Origin: a virus
Virus record (IMG/VR): IMGVR_UViG_3300018083_000050
Location: 1 to 45,441 of that record
Direction: 5' to 3' (one strand)
DNA length: 45,441 nt
Shown here: positions 2,379-44,217 of the stretch, piece after piece
Layout: each line of letters starts with the position of its first letter
Position numbering within the stretch: the stretch's first letter is position 1
Translations under genes and position numbers: made by a program
Notes under the pieces: generated by a model
What the model saw: only the letters and a program-made list of their open reading frames with translations
Told to the model about the DNA's origin: nothing
Databases searched by the model: none

Positions 2379-4767
2379 CGAAAAGCTCCTGAAGGATGAG
2401 GATTGGGCGCAGGACCTCTGGACAATCGTAAAGAATCTCGAGCTAGCGGACAAATCTGCGAGGGATCGCCTCATTCGCAAATACCGCAAGCAGATGTTCT
2501 ATTGGGATCATCTCCAGTATCTCTGGTGGAACGATACCGTCTACGATTGGAGAACTCCAGACCAGGCCCGAACTGACCTGACGGGCGATGACCGAGTTTC
2601 CATCGACCCCGCTCTCTACGCCAAGGTCATCAATATCTATCGCGCGCACGGTGAGATCATCATTGCCGCGATGAGTAGTTCCACTCCTAAGATTCAGTTT
2701 CCGCCAGACGACGCCGACAATCCAGACGATATCCTCTGTGCTAAGAGTAAGACGAAGCTTGCTGAGTTGATCCAGCGACACAATTACGCTGACCTACTCA
2801 TGACGAAAGCGTTGTTCCTACTCTATAACCAAGGTCTCGTCTGTGCGTATAACGAGACAATGGAGTCAGAGGAATATGGAACCATCGATCGAGAAATCAC
2901 CGAGGAAGTTCCAAAGACAAGACGTGACTACTTCTGTCCAGATTGTGGAATGGCGCTTGGATCTGAGCAGTTGGACTCTAATCTTCCACCGGACCCTGAG
3001 ACTGGGATGGTTGGGGATAATCAGGAAGAAGATCCTGAAGAGACGATTGTGCCTGAAGGTGGAGAGGAACTCGAATCCTCCCCACAAATTGTTCAGCCAG
3101 CGAACATTCCCATACAAGAAGGAATTTGTCCTAACTGTTCCGGCAAATCAGGAACTGAAGTTAGAGTCCCTCTGGAGTTTGAGGACTACGACGAGCTAGC
3201 ATCCGAGACCACAGGCTGGGAGAAGGAAAATAAGTGTCGTCAAATCCTCACCTTCTGGGGTCCGCTCAATGTCAAACTCCCTGCGTGGATTCGTCGTCTC
3301 AATGATTCGCCTTATCTCATCTTGGAGACTGAAGAGCACTACGCCAAGATGCAGAGTATCTATGAGGAGATTCAGGAACACATCGAACCTTCAGGCAATC
3401 CAGAGTATTCCGATCGAACCCATCGTGCGACGCCGGCGTATTCTGGGGACTTCCCGCGAGATCTGGTCACAGTTCGTCGCTGCTGGCTCAGACCCTGGGC
3501 GTTCAATACGCTTGGAGTAAAGACAGAAGATAACAAAGCTCGGGTTCAGGTTCTCAAAGACAAGTTCCCGAAAGGTTGTTACGTCGTCATCATCAACGAT
3601 GGCATTATTGCAGAGGCCGTTGACGACAAGCTGGACGACCATTGGACTTGCACAGTTCATCCTCTCTCAGACGTTCTCCACGCTGAGCCAATCGGTGCGC
3701 CGGTTATGCCAGTGCAGGACATGACGAATGAGTTGGGCAACCTGACTCTGGAGAATATCGAGCACGCAATTCCTGAGGTCTACATCAATTCCGATACCAT
3801 CGATTGGGACAACTACGAAAAGTCAGAAGCCCGTCCTGGCATGAACTATCCGGCGACCAAAATGCCGGGTGAGCCGATGGGCAATAATTTCCATGAGGTT
3901 AAAGGTGGCACCCTCTCGAAGGAAGTCGAGTCATTCGCAGACCGCTTGGAGAAGTTTGCGCAGTTTGTTGTTGGCTCCCTCCCCTCGGTGTTTGGTGGAC
4001 AAATTGACGGCGGATCTAACACCGCCAAAGAATACGAGATGTCCCGGACACAAGCTCTCCAGCGGCTATCGACGACCTGGAAGATGGTCACGACTTTCTG
4101 GGTGCAAGTTATCGGAAAAGCTGTCAATGCCCACTCGGACTATTTGATGGAGTCAGGGCAGGATGAGCGGTGGACGACCCAGTCTGGCAACACGTTCGTC
4201 AATGTATGGGTGGAGCATGCGAAGCTCACTGGCAAGATTGGTGACGCCTACGCGGAAGGATCTGAGTCGCTCCCAGTCTCGTGGAATGAAAAGCGTTCTG
4301 CGATTCTCGGTCTCATACAGATGCAGAACCCGATGATCGAGTCGGTGATGTCAGACCCACAGAACTCCTCTCTGGTTGCTCGACTTGTTGGGCTTCCCGA
4401 GATGCACATCCCCGGCGATCAGGATAGAGTCAAGCAGCTCTGGGAAATCTCGAAGCTTATCGCCGAGGAGCCAATCGAGATCCCGAATGGGGTTCCGACA
4501 GCAATGGGCGAGGAGGGGTCAGATGTTATGCCCTCCATCCAAATCGATCCACTTCTCGATGACCATAAGATCGAAGGCGATACCTGCGCATACTGGCTCA
4601 AGTCAGATATCGGGCTGGACTACAAGATAAACAAGCCCGGTGCGTGGTTGAACGTCTATTCTCATTTCAAGATGCACAGAGAAGCCGAAGCAATGCTCGC
4701 TCCTGCTCCAGAAGAATCAGGTGAAGAAACATCTGACGAAAGTGAAGTTGAGGAGATAGGGGCATGA
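2329..4767 (+). CDS. Portal protein with an internal zinc ribbon
   Basis: The 812-residue protein lies directly after the terminase and before the head genes, as expected for the dodecameric portal that forms the DNA channel and anchors the terminase. The region around residues 440-560 (DMTNELGN, then FVVGSLPSVFGG and TAKEYEMSRTQALQRL) is the helical core typical of large podoviral portals. Unusually, C203-P-D-C206 and C267-P-N-C270 form two CxxC knuckles separated by a Pro/Glu-rich acidic loop, so a zinc ribbon appears inserted in the N-terminal third. The C-terminus is acidic (residues about 790-812). The ATG at 2329 follows an AGAGGCGAAAG sequence. The stop overlaps the next gene's ATG. 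Confidence 0.88.
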   Translation: MLETPELQRKAPAQQSSEKLLKDEDWAQDLWTIVKNLELADKSARDRLIRKYRKQMFYWDHLQYLWWNDTVYDWRTPDQARTDLTGDDRVSIDPALYAKVINIYRAHGEIIIAAMSSSTPKIQFPPDDADNPDDILCAKSKTKLAELIQRHNYADLLMTKALFLLYNQGLVCAYNETMESEEYGTIDREITEEVPKTRRDYFCPDCGMALGSEQLDSNLPPDPETGMVGDNQEEDPEETIVPEGGEELESSPQIVQPANIPIQEGICPNCSGKSGTEVRVPLEFEDYDELASETTGWEKENKCRQILTFWGPLNVKLPAWIRRLNDSPYLILETEEHYAKMQSIYEEIQEHIEPSGNPEYSDRTHRATPAYSGDFPRDLVTVRRCWLRPWAFNTLGVKTEDNKARVQVLKDKFPKGCYVVIINDGIIAEAVDDKLDDHWTCTVHPLSDVLHAEPIGAPVMPVQDMTNELGNLTLENIEHAIPEVYINSDTIDWDNYEKSEARPGMNYPATKMPGEPMGNNFHEVKGGTLSKEVESFADRLEKFAQFVVGSLPSVFGGQIDGGSNTAKEYEMSRTQALQRLSTTWKMVTTFWVQVIGKAVNAHSDYLMESGQDERWTTQSGNTFVNVWVEHAKLTGKIGDAYAEGSESLPVSWNEKRSAILGLIQMQNPMIESVMSDPQNSSLVARLVGLPEMHIPGDQDRVKQLWEISKLIAEEPIEIPNGVPTAMGEEGSDVMPSIQIDPLLDDHKIEGDTCAYWLKSDIGLDYKINKPGAWLNVYSHFKMHREAEAMLAPAPEESGEETSDESEVEEIGA

Positions 4768-5936
4768 TGAAAAGGCTTCTGCTTGTTCTCGTTTGTTTTG
4801 TAGCTCTCACTAGCAGAGCCTATGCCCAGGACTGGAAGGGTCAAACCTACAGCTTGAGCACATCGCAGCTCTGTCAGACTCTCGAACTTCCGAACATGGG
4901 AACTGGCGTCTGGCAGGTGACGGCGATCGCTGGCGCTACCATGACGTTCTCGGTTTCCACGCTCGATACAACTGCTCTCTACCAGACGATTGCGGGAACG
5001 AGCACGGCTGGTGTTCCGGCCTCTACTACGACAACGACTGGTGCGTGGGCTGCGGGAGTTGCCGGATATCGGTTCATGCGGTCCTGCATCGACGCTGGCA
5101 CTGCTACTGTCAGGATGCACGCTACGGCAACGGGTGGAGGTAGTGGCTCTGGTGGTGGTGGCGGTGGTGGGGTCGTTACTGGAACTGTCAATGTTACCTT
5201 CGATGGTAATACGTTGAAGCTACATGCGACAGGAGATTCCACTATTCCTTATCTGATGCCCACAATCGCTTACAACGAAGATGGGACTGTGGCACAATTC
5301 GGGACACTCAATTATCATAACAATGCCGCACTGGTTAGTCAGGATGGTGTTGTTACGTTATGCAAGTCAGACCCTGGGGTTCCGACGGCCCTGAGCTTTG
5401 ATACCAATTTGAGTTGGCTCCATTGTAACGATAAGGGAGACCAATTTGTCGTTCCTGCAGTAAATGGGACAGCACTGTTTGGGGCTGCGGCTGCTCTGGC
5501 TGACAATACGGCCAACCCTACACTGACAAAGATTGCTACCTATCCTCACTACCTTGATCCAGCGGGAACGTGGGATCGGTGGCCAGGATATGCTCCTTGT
5601 TCCCAGACCATCATTCGTTCGGACAATACGAACAACGATGATGAGACTGAGATCAAGTCAACGGCTGGAGTCATCTGTGGGATAACTGGTTGGAATGCTC
5701 ATGCCTCAACCAATGCGTATGTGAGATGCACGAATGCTGTGGCGGCGAGCACGACACCGGGATCGACAGCAGTTATCTACGACGAGATTATTCCCTTCAG
5801 TTCAGGGATGATCGATACAAAAGTTGACGTTCCTTTCGCTACTGCTCTAACCTGCTACCTCGCAACCGGCAAAGCAGTGACAGATGCAACTGATCCTGGG
5901 TTGGATGATGTCGTTGTCATGGTGAGGTATCGGTAA
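4764..5936 (+). CDS. Secreted-type protein 1 of the portal-scaffold insert
   Basis: A Sec signal peptide is clear: MMKR, a hydrophobic core (LLLVLVCFVAL) and cleavage after AYA at residue 21. The 390-residue product is rich in Thr, Ala, Gly and Ser and probably beta-structured. A poly-Gly linker lies around residues 123-136 (coding GGTGGT repeats near 5140-5170), and a C-terminal domain follows from about residue 140. The function is not recognised. The gene overlaps the portal stop as ATGATGA, so it is translationally coupled, and it is the first of four consecutive exported-type genes. It could be a virion surface or fibre protein assembled outside the cytoplasm, or a protein exported to the cell surface late in infection. 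Confidence 0.85.
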   Translation: MMKRLLLVLVCFVALTSRAYAQDWKGQTYSLSTSQLCQTLELPNMGTGVWQVTAIAGATMTFSVSTLDTTALYQTIAGTSTAGVPASTTTTTGAWAAGVAGYRFMRSCIDAGTATVRMHATATGGGSGSGGGGGGGVVTGTVNVTFDGNTLKLHATGDSTIPYLMPTIAYNEDGTVAQFGTLNYHNNAALVSQDGVVTLCKSDPGVPTALSFDTNLSWLHCNDKGDQFVVPAVNGTALFGAAAALADNTANPTLTKIATYPHYLDPAGTWDRWPGYAPCSQTIIRSDNTNNDDETEIKSTAGVICGITGWNAHASTNAYVRCTNAVAASTTPGSTAVIYDEIIPFSSGMIDTKVDVPFATALTCYLATGKAVTDATDPGLDDVVVMVRYR

Positions 5937-6745
5937 TGAGAAAGTTTCTAGTCATTCTACTCATTTGTCTTGTAGCTTCTCCTGCTGAGGCTACTTGGTC
6001 TTTGATTGAGAATGGTGCATTTGGGACTGCCACAGCAGCAGGAGCAACAGTAGGAGTAACAGGACTAGGCGCAGATGCACCGATAGGTAGAGTTGCTATT
6101 GTCCATTGTTCTGCTCATTATACAGGAGCAGGGTCATCTGGTGCTACGACAGTAATGTCAGTATCAGATAATGATGGAATCAATGTATATACTCGGTTAG
6201 TTGAGCGCACAGTCAATAATGCTACGACCGACCAAATAGCTGGTCTTTTTTATAGTCAGCTTACAAATATCCTTGAGACCACTGATACAGTTACTTGCAA
6301 TACAGGTAATGGTTCATCAGAAGGAAAAGTAGTCAATCTTTGGATATTCTCTGTTTCAGCTGGTTCGACTGTAGCACCAGCAGGAACTACTGCACAAGGT
6401 TCAGGAACAAGCACAAGTTATTCTACAGGTGGTATTGCGAGTTTATCTAATATAGAGAGATTATGGCTTGGCGCAATTAGCATGAGCCATTCATCAGGCA
6501 GTATTACTTGTGATGCAACATTCACTTGTGGTTCGTCCCGATTAGCTAATACAGGGACAGCTTTGACTTCTCAAATTTTAAATACTGGTTATCTTGTTCA
6601 GACAGCTACAGGTGACGATTTCGCAGGATCCATCAGTGTTTCTCGTGTTTGGAATGATCTGGTAGCCGCATTAGAGGAAACTCTAGCTGGTGGAGCAACT
6701 CGTAATGTCGGTGGCATGATGGGATTTCCTGGAGTTAGACGATGA
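5936..6745 (+). CDS. Secreted-type protein 2 of the portal-scaffold insert (AT-rich)
   Basis: The 269-residue product begins with a signal peptide (MRKFLVILLICLVASPAEA, cleavage near residue 19). The mature part looks like an all-beta Gly/Ser/Thr-rich domain with four or five cysteines and alternating hydrophobic strands, ending in a Gly-rich, basic tail (GGMMGFPGVRR). I do not recognise the family. Similar Ser/Thr/Gly-rich beta proteins are common in phage fibres. TAATG overlap joins it to the preceding gene and ATGA overlap to the next. Base composition is odd: four lines counted by hand run from about 32% to 48% GC, against about 67% in a line of the capsid gene. That suggests separate acquisition. 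Confidence 0.83.
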   Translation: MRKFLVILLICLVASPAEATWSLIENGAFGTATAAGATVGVTGLGADAPIGRVAIVHCSAHYTGAGSSGATTVMSVSDNDGINVYTRLVERTVNNATTDQIAGLFYSQLTNILETTDTVTCNTGNGSSEGKVVNLWIFSVSAGSTVAPAGTTAQGSGTSTSYSTGGIASLSNIERLWLGAISMSHSSGSITCDATFTCGSSRLANTGTALTSQILNTGYLVQTATGDDFAGSISVSRVWNDLVAALEETLAGGATRNVGGMMGFPGVRR

Positions 6746-9726
6746 AAAAACTTGGACTCGCACTGCTTTCTCTCACGCTTCTGGGTATCCCTGTCAAGGT
6801 CGAGGCCCAGGCGCTCACTTCGGCCTCAAGTGCGACGGCACAAGCCTGCACGTCCATTGCACTTGGAACCATCACTTGGGTTTTTACGACGACCTATACG
6901 TGCGGTCGATACGCCACAGGAGATTTCTGGGTCACGAATTCCGGTGGCTCGACTGTCTCCATTAAGAGTATTAGTCCGGCATACACTATCGCTGCGGACG
7001 GTTCGGCGCGTAATGGTTCGATGTTGAATCCTGGCTCCTCGATGGCGGGGTATGGGTCGAACGGATTCGACTCTCGGACTATTGGACATTCCACAGGAGG
7101 CTTAGGTTATACCGCAGGAAATAACGTCGGGATTACGATGCCACTTGTGATTACTGAGGGGTCGTCGCTACTCTCCTCGGAATCCTATGGGGATACTCGT
7201 CCCGGTGGATCTCATCAATCTTACATCAAGCAGATCCAGGTCTTGACGGTCGTAACTGCCAATGCCAACGTAGGAGACTTCAGACCTTCATATATCGCTA
7301 CGGTGAGCAAAGCATCGCCGGCGAATGTGAGCTCTATCGACTACGGTAAGTTACATTCAGTTGTTCCTCCTACAACCTTTACTAATACCTATAGTGTCGC
7401 TTTTCTTGATACTATCATGGTCGAGCCGCAGATTGAATTGGAGATGTCGACGAAAGGTCGTTACCTCCATGCAGGGGATAATTACAGTCCAAAGGTAGGT
7501 TTTTCTACTGACTATGGGTATGGACAGAATATTGGCATGGCTATCGGTGTTTTATCGATGGCAGTCAACAGTAACTATACTAATGGTCAGAAAGCGCCTT
7601 GGGTTATCAGACTTATCCAACACGGTATCGATCTGAGGTATGCGTTGGACAAGGCTACTGGCACTCCTCAGCAGGGAATCAGAATGCTTGCGGGGGGTTC
7701 TCATACTCCTGCTAAGATATTCGTGATGGCATTCGCAGGATGGATGTTAGGTAATGCGGACCTTGCTGCATGGGGAGATCATGCCCAACATCCGGTAACC
7801 AATGAATCGAATCAGTATTTCTACGTAGCTCAATCTGACATCTGTGCAAGCTGTAAGACTGGAGCAAGCTCAGCAACGAATTGCACTCCGGCCGAGCAAT
7901 ATCCTCAGTCCTCATTGAACGAGCCTGAGTGGGGGAGTGACCACAAGACTTCTCCTCAACAGGATAATCACAGTTTTACTTATCATGCTTGCTATCGAGA
8001 TCAGGTAGGTCAGGCTACTAACTCTGAAGTCCTCGCAATGAAGATGATGGGGATGAAGTTAGCAGTAAATCTACCTCAGTTATTCGAATATTATGAGCAG
8101 CGGTATATGCCAGCCTCTTACTCCGAGGCAAATTTCGATACGAATACAATCAGAGACTGGCAGAGAGATTTCTGGCAGACTTACAAGGATATTACGCCGC
8201 CAAGTGGTGGGACACCTCCAACCAATGTCAATCCTACCTTAAACATTATCTCGGCTGTATCTCAGGAGACTACATCTACAACTGGAACCGTTACTCTATC
8301 CTATGCAGATAGCGATGGAACTGTATCTAGTGTGGCTTGGACGAGGACTGCACCTACCTCGGCGTCAGGTTCTTGCTCACTAGTTGCTGGAACCGCAACC
8401 TGCTCTGGCTTGACTTTGACGGGCGCGGCTAATAATGCCTTCTCTTTTATAGCTACAGATAACTCGGGGGGAACCTCTACAGCTGTCCTAGCGAATATCC
8501 TTCGTAGGACTTGTCCTGCTACTCCAGCAGATACTTTCGACGTGAATGGTGGATGGTCAAGTTCACTGGGTCCGTGTTGGCTGCCGATGACTACCAATAC
8601 CATGAATATTGGTGTTCAAGGATATGCCCAGATATCTAGTGCATTGGCCAGACATCTTGCTTACATGCCTTGGTCTGGTGGAGCGCCGGACGATTACAAG
8701 GTTCAAGTTACATCTACATCAAACGTAACCGAGGTATCTTTCCTTCTGTTTGGATGTTTCAGCTCTTATACCTCTGCCGGCATTTACAACGGCTACGTAA
8801 TGTCGATGCAGGGACTTGGGACTAACCTTGCTAGATACGATGCTGGCCAACGAGTTAGTCTTGCGCCGAATACTCAGGTCGCAGACGGAAATTGGATAGC
8901 TGGAGAAACAGGGACATTAGAATGCGAAGATACAGGAAGTAGTGTTATCCTTAGAGCTTACGATCAGAATAACGTTCTTATCGTGAGTGCTACGGATTCT
9001 ACTGCTGGTAGATATACCTCAGGAGAGGCTTTTGCTGGTGGATGGGGTGGGGCTACTTTCGATGGTTTCGTAGCTACATCTATTGTTGGTGGTCCTGGTG
9101 CAGATACAACTCCCCCAACGCTAGGTGTTACTGTTCCTGTCAATAACCCAGCCGATACTAACGACTCAACATACAATCTCTTAGCTGGAACAGCAGTCGA
9201 TAATGTAGGAGTAACATCGATTACTTGTTTGAATGTTACTACCTCAACATCCTGCACGGTTACTGGATTAGGTCCCTGGAGTGTGGCAAGTGTTACATTG
9301 ACAGGAACCAACATCATCAGATTCCAAGCTTGTGATGCAGCAACGAATTGCTCTGTTCCATACGATGTTACATTGAATTACTCCGCTGCATCTTCAGGGA
9401 CGATTTTGGTTAGTGATCCTGGACCGGCGAGAACTGAACCTTACTTCTTCAGAGGCGACCAGACGAATTTCCGTGGGGCCTGTTCTATGGGAACGGACCA
9501 TGTAGAGATTCTTGTCGCAGGGGTTTTGATTGACCCAAGTGGAACTCCAGCTAGTTCTGCATTTGTTAGTGGGACCACAGCCTGGGTGACCATTCAACCT
9601 ATTCCGATTCCAAAGAACGTTGGTGATATTGTTCCTGTCGAATTCCGTTGTGTCCAAGGCGATAGCAGTTACGCTTCGTCTATACTCAACATGAGTTCGC
9701 TGAGAGTTCCGAATAGAGGGAGATAG
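6742..9726 (+). CDS. Large exported multidomain protein, possible surface fibre or glycan-active protein
   Basis: The 994-residue product has a signal peptide (cleaved near VEA-QA, residues 22-24). Residues about 36-67 form a compact motif with W, F, CGRY, TGD and WV that recurs in the 63-residue exported protein at 36922-37113. Residues about 150-480 are helix-rich, with Trp, Tyr and His clusters. This is reminiscent of (alpha/alpha) toroid glycan-active proteins, but no catalytic set is certain. Ig-like beta domains lie near 498-592 and 789-880, a lectin-like jelly-roll candidate near 598-780, and a beta-rich C-terminal domain near 890-994. It starts within the preceding gene (ATGA overlap). 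A receptor-binding, depolymerase or cell-surface protein is plausible; the identity is inferred. Confidence 0.85.
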   Translation: MKKLGLALLSLTLLGIPVKVEAQALTSASSATAQACTSIALGTITWVFTTTYTCGRYATGDFWVTNSGGSTVSIKSISPAYTIAADGSARNGSMLNPGSSMAGYGSNGFDSRTIGHSTGGLGYTAGNNVGITMPLVITEGSSLLSSESYGDTRPGGSHQSYIKQIQVLTVVTANANVGDFRPSYIATVSKASPANVSSIDYGKLHSVVPPTTFTNTYSVAFLDTIMVEPQIELEMSTKGRYLHAGDNYSPKVGFSTDYGYGQNIGMAIGVLSMAVNSNYTNGQKAPWVIRLIQHGIDLRYALDKATGTPQQGIRMLAGGSHTPAKIFVMAFAGWMLGNADLAAWGDHAQHPVTNESNQYFYVAQSDICASCKTGASSATNCTPAEQYPQSSLNEPEWGSDHKTSPQQDNHSFTYHACYRDQVGQATNSEVLAMKMMGMKLAVNLPQLFEYYEQRYMPASYSEANFDTNTIRDWQRDFWQTYKDITPPSGGTPPTNVNPTLNIISAVSQETTSTTGTVTLSYADSDGTVSSVAWTRTAPTSASGSCSLVAGTATCSGLTLTGAANNAFSFIATDNSGGTSTAVLANILRRTCPATPADTFDVNGGWSSSLGPCWLPMTTNTMNIGVQGYAQISSALARHLAYMPWSGGAPDDYKVQVTSTSNVTEVSFLLFGCFSSYTSAGIYNGYVMSMQGLGTNLARYDAGQRVSLAPNTQVADGNWIAGETGTLECEDTGSSVILRAYDQNNVLIVSATDSTAGRYTSGEAFAGGWGGATFDGFVATSIVGGPGADTTPPTLGVTVPVNNPADTNDSTYNLLAGTAVDNVGVTSITCLNVTTSTSCTVTGLGPWSVASVTLTGTNIIRFQACDAATNCSVPYDVTLNYSAASSGTILVSDPGPARTEPYFFRGDQTNFRGACSMGTDHVEILVAGVLIDPSGTPASSAFVSGTTAWVTIQPIPIPKNVGDIVPVEFRCVQGDSSYASSILNMSSLRVPNRGR

Positions 9727-9727
9727 A

Positions 9728-10021
9728 ATGACCAAGTTTATCAGTTCCGTTATCATTGCGCTCCTCCTGAGTGCGACTGTTAATGCTCAGGAGGCTTCGA
9801 AGCAGGAGGTCGATGCTCTGGCCTCACAGATAGCTCAAGTCGTAGCGCAGAACAAGCAGCTTCAGGATCAGATTGCTCAGCTGCGACAGGTCATGGCTCT
9901 GGAGCAGAATAAGAAGACAGGCAAAGAGCTTGTCCAACAGATGAGGGATGCGTGCAAAAAAGAGGGTGCATCCTATAAGGGATTCATCAATCAACCACAA
10001 CCAATTCCGATCTGCAAGTAA
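9728..10021 (+). CDS. Small secreted coiled-coil protein
   Basis: The 97-residue product has a signal peptide (MTKFISSVIIALLLSATVNA, cleavage near residue 20). A heptad-rich Gln/Leu/Ala coiled coil follows (about residues 25-63), then a basic end with two cysteines (C76, C96) that could form a disulfide in the periplasm. GGGAGATAG precedes the ATG. It is the last of four consecutive exported-type genes before the scaffold gene. It could be a periplasmic assembly factor for the large exported protein, a trimerising partner, or an outer-type spanin-like subunit. No lipobox is seen, which argues against the last option. Confidence 0.82.
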   Translation: MTKFISSVIIALLLSATVNAQEASKQEVDALASQIAQVVAQNKQLQDQIAQLRQVMALEQNKKTGKELVQQMRDACKKEGASYKGFINQPQPIPICK

Positions 10022-35817: not shown

Positions 35818-36746
35818 TATTCTGGCTCCACTCCTGTCACGTGTGTTTGTTGCTGGTCTTTATCGAGTAGCTCATGTTGGGGACGAATGTGATACCAAGT
35901 CTGAAGCTTCACCTCTCGAACTGCCGGGATAGCTTTACAGACAGGCTTGAATCTACATCCAGAGAACTTGTTACAGGAGGTTCGATTACGTGGCCAATCA
36001 GGATGACCAGCAGCCTCCCGTTTGTGGCGTTCAATTGTCGCGAGGACCGACTTGATTACGTCAACTCGCCACTCCTCAATGATTGCCTTGCTACGGTAAT
36101 TGAGGAAGATACGCCGGAACTTTTCTTCGTCCTTGAGGGAAGTCTGGAATCCCACCTTATTGACTACAATGTCATCCACGTCGAAAGCCCAGGCAGAACC
36201 CTCGAACTGATTGTCTAGCTCAGAGGGGTTCGTCTTCCGGCTCTCAGACTTGTGGTCCCAGACGGCCAGCGGATTATTCGGGAGAGTTGCGACTAAGTCT
36301 ACGCGACCTTCCCAGAGAATTCGGACACCGTGAATCTTCTCTCCGTTAGGTCCTTCTCTGTCCGGAGTTTCGTATAAGATTCGAGAGAACGGCTCCTCCA
36401 CAGCATGGACTGTAATGCCATCCTGTCGGTGATGTATGAGGGACTGTCGGGCAGCACCAATGGCTTCGTCAATCTCACTGACAGATATAGCGAGATCAAC
36501 ACCAACTCGTCGGCCCTTGTTAGTCGCTTCGTCAAGAACAATACCCTCACGTTCAGGGCTAGAGAACCAATTCTCAGTCATCTTCGCTTTGTAGTAGTGC
36601 GAGTGGACTGCATGAACAACTGTCCCCTGGTCGAGGGGTTTGTCGTTCTCGTTGACAGCCCAACGCCGATTGTATGTTAGGTTGTAAAGCTCCCAACAAG
36701 AGTCGATGACATTGATCTTGCTCGCTGAGACTGCAAAGACTATCAT
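35817..36746 (-). CDS. PD-(D/E)XK nuclease of Cas4/RecB type
   Basis: The 309-residue product shows the GxxxH-like motif at 41-45 (GTVVH), an acidic D150 in WEGRVD and the D164-x-K166 catalytic pair (VWDHKSES). Four cysteines (C17, C258, C264, C270) lie at the places where Cas4 and AddB-type nucleases hold an iron-sulfur cluster. This would be a 5'-3' exonuclease or resecting partner of the Sak4-like ATPase and SSB. The family pattern is strong; specificity is not known. It is coupled to its neighbours (TAATG and ATGA overlaps). Confidence 0.85.
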   Translation of the reverse strand: MIVFAVSASKINVIDSCWELYNLTYNRRWAVNENDKPLDQGTVVHAVHSHYYKAKMTENWFSSPEREGIVLDEATNKGRRVGVDLAISVSEIDEAIGAARQSLIHHRQDGITVHAVEEPFSRILYETPDREGPNGEKIHGVRILWEGRVDLVATLPNNPLAVWDHKSESRKTNPSELDNQFEGSAWAFDVDDIVVNKVGFQTSLKDEEKFRRIFLNYRSKAIIEEWRVDVIKSVLATIERHKREAAGHPDWPRNRTSCNKFSGCRFKPVCKAIPAVREVKLQTWYHIRPQHELLDKDQQQTHVTGVEPE

Positions 36747-36925
36747 AGTCCTAATCTTCCAATTGGGCAGTTAGGATGATGCTCCCCAGTTTTATTGCAC
36801 TCCCTACATTTTCCCTTTTCGTAAATCTTGTATAGGACTCGATTTCTAGCGCCCAATCCCAAGGCAAGACCGACTAGAAAGCAGAGAAATTGTAGGATTA
36901 AATCTACGATTAGCTCATTACTCAT
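36743..36925 (-). CDS. Membrane protein with a Cys/His zinc motif
   Basis: The ATG at 36925, not an upstream GTG, is the likely start, because it makes an ATGA overlap with the stop of the 63-residue exported protein. The 60-residue product has one membrane helix (about residues 5-25) and a short tail with CRECNKTGEHHPNC, a CxxC-HHxxC zinc-binding pattern, near its C-terminus. The function is unknown. It may anchor a zinc tail on the cytoplasmic side. Confidence 0.75.
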   Translation of the reverse strand: MSNELIVDLILQFLCFLVGLALGLGARNRVLYKIYEKGKCRECNKTGEHHPNCPIGRLGL

Positions 36926-37113
36926 TTGCTGTTCCTTACCCACCAATCGCCGGTCTTATAACGACCACACTCTCTCATATCGTTAAAAGTCCAAGACATA
37001 TTGCCTATTACAATCACTTTGCAATATGCGTGGGACTCTTGGACGGGATACTTATAGAATCCGAGAGTCATGAGTCCAATCATTGCCAGGAGAATGAAGA
37101 TGAGAAGTTTCAT
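36922..37113 (-). CDS. Early exported protein sharing a module with the large late exported protein
   Basis: The 63-residue product begins with MKLLIFILLAMIGLMTLGF, a signal peptide or membrane anchor. Its mature part (from about residue 30) aligns without gaps to residues about 36-67 of the 994-residue exported late protein: C at position 0, W at 10, F at 12, CGRY at 18-21, TGD at 23-25, WV at 27-28 and NS at 30-31. That is 16 identities in 32. The two cysteines are 18 residues apart in both, so the same disulfide is likely. The role is unknown. A decoy or competitor of the late protein at the cell surface is a tempting guess. Confidence 0.85.
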   Translation of the reverse strand: MKLLIFILLAMIGLMTLGFYKYPVQESHAYCKVIVIGNMSWTFNDMRECGRYKTGDWWVRNSK

Positions 37114-37244
37114 CGTAGCCTATCCTTGATAGCTGACAGTTCCCACCTAATATCTCTCAAGATGCTATTTTGCCCACACTGTGCCATCTGAGCCATAGCG
37201 ATAATGTAGAGCATAAGAGCAATAGCCCACAATGGACCTCTCAT
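37110..37244 (-). CDS. Small membrane or secreted protein (44 residues)
   Basis: From ATG 37244, 44 codons encode MRGPLWAIALMLYIIAMAQM, then CGQNSILRDIRWELSAIKDRL. The first 20 residues are hydrophobic, like a signal peptide or single membrane helix. The remainder is an amphipathic helix with one Cys near residue 23. ATGA overlaps at both ends support a real gene, which is coupled to the exported module protein downstream. No function known. Confidence 0.68.
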   Translation of the reverse strand: MRGPLWAIALMLYIIAMAQMAQCGQNSILRDIRWELSAIKDRLR

Positions 37245-44022: not shown

Positions 44023-44217
44023 CTAGTCCAGGATTGTCACGGTCGTATTCCAAGAGCACTGATACTCCCACGCGGGATAAACAGGCTCAGTCTCATGAAC
44101 AGCTCGCTCGATCCCTGCATCGCATGTCACGTCTCGATGTCCAGTTACTCCCCAGATGTAACCGAGGATAACAGCAGCAGTGATGAGAATCGTGATGAGT
44201 GGAGGAGATACTCTCAT
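44023..44217 (-). CDS. Secreted or membrane small protein with two cysteines
   Basis: The 64-residue product begins MRVSPPLITILITAAVILGY, an N-terminal hydrophobic helix (about residues 7-22), then a polar part with two Cys about 22 residues apart (DVTCDAG, then YQCSW), possibly a periplasmic disulfide. ATGA overlap with the upstream gene shows coupling. The mature part has no strong match to the CGRY-type module. Function unknown. Confidence 0.7.
   Translation of the reverse strand: MRVSPPLITILITAAVILGYIWGVTGHRDVTCDAGIERAVHETEPVYPAWEYQCSWNTTVTILD

What the first reader, a model, noticed from the sequence alone, without database searches (positions are those of the whole stretch)
36922..37113. 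Early exported 63-residue protein mimics the start of a large late exported protein
The mature part of the early protein aligns ungapped with residues about 36-67 of the 994-residue late protein (6742-9726): 16 of 32 identical, including CGRY, TGD, WV, NS and two cysteines 18 residues apart. One copy is early and minus-strand, the other late and plus-strand. A host-surface decoy, superinfection-exclusion factor or competitor for a shared receptor or periplasmic partner would explain such a pair. Domain duplication by chance recombination is the alternative.
Basis: partly seen in the sequence, partly recalled or inferred. Interest (0 to 1): 0.85.

Follow-up and report, generated by a model that had tools for sequence, protein, structure and literature searches.

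The report
Small early copy of late-protein edge
A virus of bacteria carries, among its replication genes, a tiny membrane-directed protein that is a genuine, long-separated relative of the first three strands of a large exported protein made by its structural genes; no other free-standing copy of this piece was found, and what it does is still untested.

Summary
Residues 31-62 of the 63-aa protein (36922-37113, -) match residues 36-67 of the 994-aa exported protein (6742-9726, +) at 16/32 positions without gaps. A profile built from relatives outside this genome also finds the small protein (E = 2.9e-7). It is the only significant protein similarity inside the window.

The shared segment is not an independent module. 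It is the N-terminal edge (strands 1-3 of a predicted beta-sandwich) of a ~450-residue domain with no Pfam/NCBIfam family and no solved relative. The domain occurs in about 25 uncultured phage records, Omega-type mycobacteriophages, Planctomycetota, a few Bacteroidota and a Pacearchaeon. Every other copy sits in a large ORF, is cut by a contig end, or (once) heads a 227-aa chimera. The free-standing 63-aa form was seen only here. Nine of 16 identical residues use different codons, so the split is old.

Most likely it is a membrane-tethered three-strand fragment of the late protein's domain, acting in the envelope on the late domain or its partner (Spackle-like exclusion or strand-mimic inhibitor). 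Homology and placement are shown; function is inferred. No relative of the early region was found, so conservation is untested.

The parts
36922..37113 (-). 63-aa small protein P0002: hydrophobic anchor/signal (residues 3-20) plus the family's N-terminal three-strand piece
36928..37023 (-). Segment of P0002 (residues 31-62) homologous to the late protein; predicted strands 25-36, 39-52, 57-60
6742..9726 (+). 994-aa exported protein P0001 with a signal peptide, in the structural gene block
6847..6942 (+). Matching segment of P0001 (residues 36-67), strands 1-3 of the predicted beta-sandwich
6847..8199 (+). About 450-residue domain (residues 36-486): N-terminal beta-sandwich plus helical part, shared with phage and Planctomycetota proteins
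4764..10021 (+). Block of four consecutive ORFs with signal-peptide-like N-termini (390, 269, 994, 97 aa) among the structural genes
36743..37244 (-). Three overlapping small membrane-protein ORFs (44, 63, 60 aa) just upstream of an exonuclease gene; P0002 is the middle one

Best explanation
P0002 is a real small gene of the replication/early operon that encodes a membrane-tethered (or periplasm-exported) free-standing copy of strands 1-3 of the N-terminal beta-sandwich of the P0001 domain family. It arose long ago from a P0001-like gene and has been kept under selection on its amino-acid sequence. The most likely way it works is envelope interference: soon after infection it sits on the periplasmic face of the inner membrane and engages either the P0001 domain itself (by strand pairing or occlusion) or the domain's partner. 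It thereby blocks or times the action of P0001-type protein, in the way T4 Spackle inhibits its own tail lysozyme. Shown: homology, gene integrity, membrane/export signal in sequence, placement. Inferred: early timing, topology, independent folding, target and exclusion effect.
For: Significant pairwise and profile similarity. P0001 is the best match of P0002 and vice versa among about 50 family segments (scores 100; next best 83 for P0002 and 89 for P0001), pointing to a specific relationship. Five of the eight near-invariant family positions in this stretch are kept and two more are conservative (I to M, T to S), read. Nine of 16 identical residues use different codons, including Ser AGC/TCC, and the flanking DNA is not similar, so amino acids are kept while synonymous sites have turned over. 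AlphaFold2 gives strands at the matching places in both proteins. ATGA overlaps and a Shine-Dalgarno-like site. It sits in an operon with exonuclease, Sak4-like annealing protein, helicase and DNA polymerase genes. Precedent: T4 Spackle, early, periplasmic, small, binds the phage's own tail protein (PMC7677548).
Against: No second sequence of P0002 exists in the data, so selection on the gene today cannot be measured; the identical contig G001 ends before the early region. The near-invariant Tyr is Arg in P0002. Whether 34-40 residues fold without the rest of the sandwich is unknown, and the model borrows an alignment of full domains. Nothing shows that P0001 is in the virion or acts on incoming phage.
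Confidence: 0.4

Rival explanations
1. Strand-complementing regulator or chaperone of the late protein: P0002 pairs with unfolded or edge strands of P0001 in the periplasm during export, holding it inactive or helping it fold, with no role in re-infection.
For: The shared piece is the domain's own first three strands, not a surface loop; both carry export/anchor sequences; the small protein would still be present when the late protein is exported.
Against: No complex was predicted; other phages with the domain lack such a partner in the records held.
Confidence: 0.2
2. Repurposed mini-fold: the fragment was captured with a signal sequence and now binds an unrelated host envelope component; the likeness to P0001 is history, not function.
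For: The one other split case, a 227-aa ORF in G002, joins signal peptide plus half the motif to an unrelated C-terminal part, showing that this N-terminal piece is moved between contexts. It lies among other small membrane proteins typical of phage early regions.
Against: Strong retention of family framework residues and reciprocal best match with P0001 suggest a continuing constraint tied to the fold.
Confidence: 0.25
3. Non-functional relic: a broken-off 5' end of a lost second domain gene, still translated.
For: Only one copy known; no known function; length ends right after strand 3.
Against: Tight ATGA overlaps on both sides, good ribosome-binding site, no remnant of the rest of the domain downstream, and amino-acid conservation with scrambled synonymous sites.
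Confidence: 0.12
4. Chance or convergent likeness of two short segments.
For: Segment is only 32 residues.
Against: Shuffle test, independent family profile and uniqueness within the window.
Confidence: 0.02

Closest known systems
T4 Spackle (superinfection exclusion protein; PMC7677548)
   Same: Early product, small, export signal, two cysteines, acts in the periplasm on the phage's own late tail protein
   Different: Spackle is an all-helical bundle not homologous to its target; P0002 is a homologous fragment of the late protein and its function is untested
T5 Llp / T1-type Cor lipoproteins (PMC9586334)
   Same: Small envelope proteins made from the phage genome that stop re-infection
   Different: Lipoproteins that act on the host receptor; P0002 has no lipobox and no known receptor
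P22 SieA (PMC10883804) and TP-J34 Ltp (PMC3952083)
   Same: Membrane- or envelope-located phage proteins; SieA blocks DNA delivery by related phages
   Different: Prophage-expressed, different size and fold, not fragments of the proteins they act on
Standalone SH3-domain protein of Drexlerviridae (PMC13164509)
   Same: A domain usually part of a larger phage protein found as a free-standing small protein
   Different: A whole domain, widespread, in the lysis cassette; P0002 is a partial domain, single case, in the replication operon
Redno2 gp43-type proteins of Omega-type mycobacteriophages (NC_022066; phrog_34846)
   Same: Carry the same ~450-residue domain, starting with ITWTF...GDWWV
   Different: Large proteins without the small free-standing copy; the label 'lysin A' is not supported by any family match here

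Membership tests
P0001-type domain family (unnamed; phrog_34846-like) | N-terminal ITWTF...G[QR][YF]xxGD[WFY]WV segment | tested here: met
   Profile without P0001 hits P0002 at E = 2.9e-7
P0001-type domain family (unnamed; phrog_34846-like) | Remaining ~400 residues (rest of sandwich, FRP motif, helical part with QxGID and GGHxxGRK) | tested here: not met
   P0002 ends after strand 3; so it is a fragment, not a full member
Superinfection exclusion proteins | Envelope location | tested here: inconclusive
   18-residue hydrophobic N-terminal run, weak cleavage site; sequence only
Superinfection exclusion proteins | Made early or from the prophage | tested here: inconclusive
   Lies in the replication operon; no expression data
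Superinfection exclusion proteins | Expression blocks infection by the same or related phage | not testable with these tools
   Needs plaque or adsorption assays
T5 Llp / Cor lipoproteins | Lipobox with lipidated cysteine | tested here: not met
   No L-x-x-C before C31; sequence context SHAYC
Known defence or counter-defence families (PADLOC) | Match to a PADLOC model | tested here: not met
   No match for P0002 or its neighbours at E <= 0.1

The most novel reading that the evidence does not exclude
A phage makes, early in infection, a membrane-tethered three-strand copy of the leading edge of its own late exported domain, which inserts into or blocks that domain (its own or that of incoming relatives): exclusion or timing by self-derived strand mimicry rather than by an unrelated inhibitor.
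Probability: 0.2. Interest if true: 0.8.

Novelty: new variant of a known kind. Interest (0 to 1): 0.5.

Why it matters
Small early membrane proteins are among the least understood phage genes. Here sequence alone links one to a specific late protein of the same phage, which gives a concrete target to test. If P0002 blocks the P0001 domain or its partner, it would be an exclusion factor evolved from the very protein it counters. The work also shows that the late protein belongs to a widespread, unnamed domain shared by unrelated phages and Planctomycetota, which several phages export as part of a block of secreted late proteins.

Tried and rejected
Pfam and NCBIfam gave no family for either protein or for the 22 domain members. 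PHROGs gave only phrog_34846. No PDB sequence relative and no significant PDB fold match; weak polysaccharide-lyase and glycosidase hits at E > 1 were not used. Viral fold library returned only homologous phage proteins. Direct search for close relatives of P0002 in viral contigs found none. One degenerate DNA pattern was written with the wrong spacing and found nothing; corrected. Two apparently short copies in Planctomycetota (117 and 67 aa) are cut by contig ends. Recent duplication was rejected because identical residues use different codons and flanks do not match. A C31-C49 disulfide is attractive but the strand register of the model does not clearly support it, so it is not claimed. I considered searching for relatives of the early region by the DNA polymerase (alignment made) but spent the last viral scan on the motif pattern.

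Full report
Observation. The window is a 45,441-base virus record. The ORF at 36922-37113 (-) encodes MKLLIFILLAMIGLMTLGFYKYPVQESHAYCKVIVIGNMSWTFNDMRECGRYKTGDWWVRNSK; the ORF at 6742-9726 (+) encodes a 994-residue protein with an N-terminal signal peptide. BLASTP aligns residues 31-62 of the former with 36-67 of the latter, 16/32 identical, no gaps, E = 2e-11 for the pair. With the small protein's last 34 residues shuffled 300 times and searched against all six frames of the window, the best score was 60 (mean 39.3, sd 4.05); the real score is 100. An all-against-all six-frame comparison shows this pair and no other.

What the shared segment is. tblastn of the large protein's first 533 residues finds 20 Mycobacterium phages of the Omega type over residues 44-486 at about 22% identity (Redno2 gp43). 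Pattern and profile searches found the same domain in about 25 IMG/VR records and in Planctomycetota, a few Bacteroidota and a Pacearchaeota genome with seven copies. The family starts with ITWTFDxxYTVGQFANGDYWVVGP and continues for about 430-450 residues. A profile of this first segment built without the window's large protein finds the small protein at E = 2.9e-7. AlphaFold2 on residues 25-500 (22 sequences, pTM 0.87, mean pLDDT 78) gives an N-terminal all-strand part, read here as a beta-sandwich, followed by a helical part; the shared segment is strands 10-17, 20-32 and 38-41 of the model. AlphaFold2 on the small protein gives a helix 2-17 and strands 25-36, 39-52, 57-60 (pLDDT 83, pTM 0.50), that is, the same three strands and no more. 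The second model borrows the alignment of full domains and is not proof of independent folding. No PDB fold matches significantly (best E = 0.46); the viral library returns only two phage proteins, one of 706 aa like Redno2 gp43.

How unusual the free-standing form is. Of about 50 distinct segments collected outside the window, and the matches in 392 Planctomycetota and 396 Bacteroidota genomes, all lie in ORFs of 423 aa or more, or in ORFs cut by a contig or locus end (checked for the 117-aa and 67-aa cases; for the 187-aa case the full record gives 476 aa), except one: a 227-aa ORF in IMGVR_UViG_3300003332_000006, where a signal peptide plus half of the segment is joined to an unrelated C-terminal part, directly upstream of a full-length copy. 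So the 63-aa form is, in this sample, single. The sample was reached by patterns and close-relative searches, so other short forms may have been missed.

Relation of the two. P0001 is the best match of P0002 (100; next 83) and P0002 the best match of P0001 (100; next 89). Both have CGRY and cysteines 18 apart. At DNA level 54/96 bases agree; 9 of 16 identical residues use different codons, including Ser AGC versus TCC, and the flanks do not match. This argues for an old split with amino acids kept. It is not a measured dN/dS: no second P0002 exists here. The contig G001 is the same phage over window 1-28123 (99.996%) and does not cover the early region.

Gene context. P0002 overlaps its neighbours by ATGA on both sides and has AAGGA before its start. 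It is the middle of three small membrane-protein ORFs (44, 63, 60 aa) upstream of an exonuclease gene, in a minus-strand block with a Sak4-like annealing protein, helicase and DNA polymerase. A near-consensus sigma-70 site (11/12) lies at 37506-37478 (-), but the region holds no more such sites than shuffles do. P0001 is the third of four consecutive ORFs with signal-peptide-like starts among structural genes. The same domain sits in blocks of signal-peptide ORFs in phages L022, L043 and L072, whose neighbouring structural proteins do not match the window's. P0002's 18-residue hydrophobic run and distant cleavage site make a tethered topology likely (inference).

Mechanism. What is shown: homology, gene integrity, a membrane/export sequence, placement. 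What is inferred: early expression, periplasmic side, independent folding, and action on P0001 or its partner. The closest precedent is T4 Spackle, an early periplasmic protein of 75 mature residues that binds and inhibits the phage's own tail lysozyme (PMC7677548); it is not homologous to its target. I put about 0.4 on envelope interference of this kind, 0.2 on a strand-complementing regulator without an exclusion role, 0.25 on a repurposed mini-fold, and 0.12 on a relic.

Verdict. Confirmed observation, explained as a fragment of a widespread unnamed domain, with an unusual free-standing early copy. Interesting and testable, not yet demonstrated to do anything.

Noticed in passing
window 4764-10021; L022 2071-8114; L043 3356-6587; L072 2742-5937: Phages with unrelated neighbouring genes carry this domain inside a run of consecutive genes that all start with signal peptides, next to structural genes; why structural-block proteins would be exported is unexplained.
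   Followed up: partly
L015 1300-1980 (IMGVR_UViG_3300003332_000006): A 227-aa ORF joins a signal peptide and half of the family's N-terminal segment to an unrelated C-terminal part, directly upstream of a full-length copy.
   Followed up: partly
G029 (Candidatus Pacearchaeota, locus L037): A genome of about 1 Mb with seven copies of this domain in ORFs of 550-651 aa, several side by side.
   Followed up: no
L004 4266-6386 (Redno2 gp43): Annotated 'lysin A', but it carries this unnamed domain after a LamG-like part; the label looks doubtful.
   Followed up: no
window 44023-44217 (-): Another 64-aa replication-block ORF with a hydrophobic N-terminus and two cysteines; no similarity to any other window protein.
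   Followed up: no
window 36743-36925 (-): 60-aa ORF with a transmembrane stretch followed by CxxC...H...C, like a membrane-anchored zinc knuckle.
   Followed up: no
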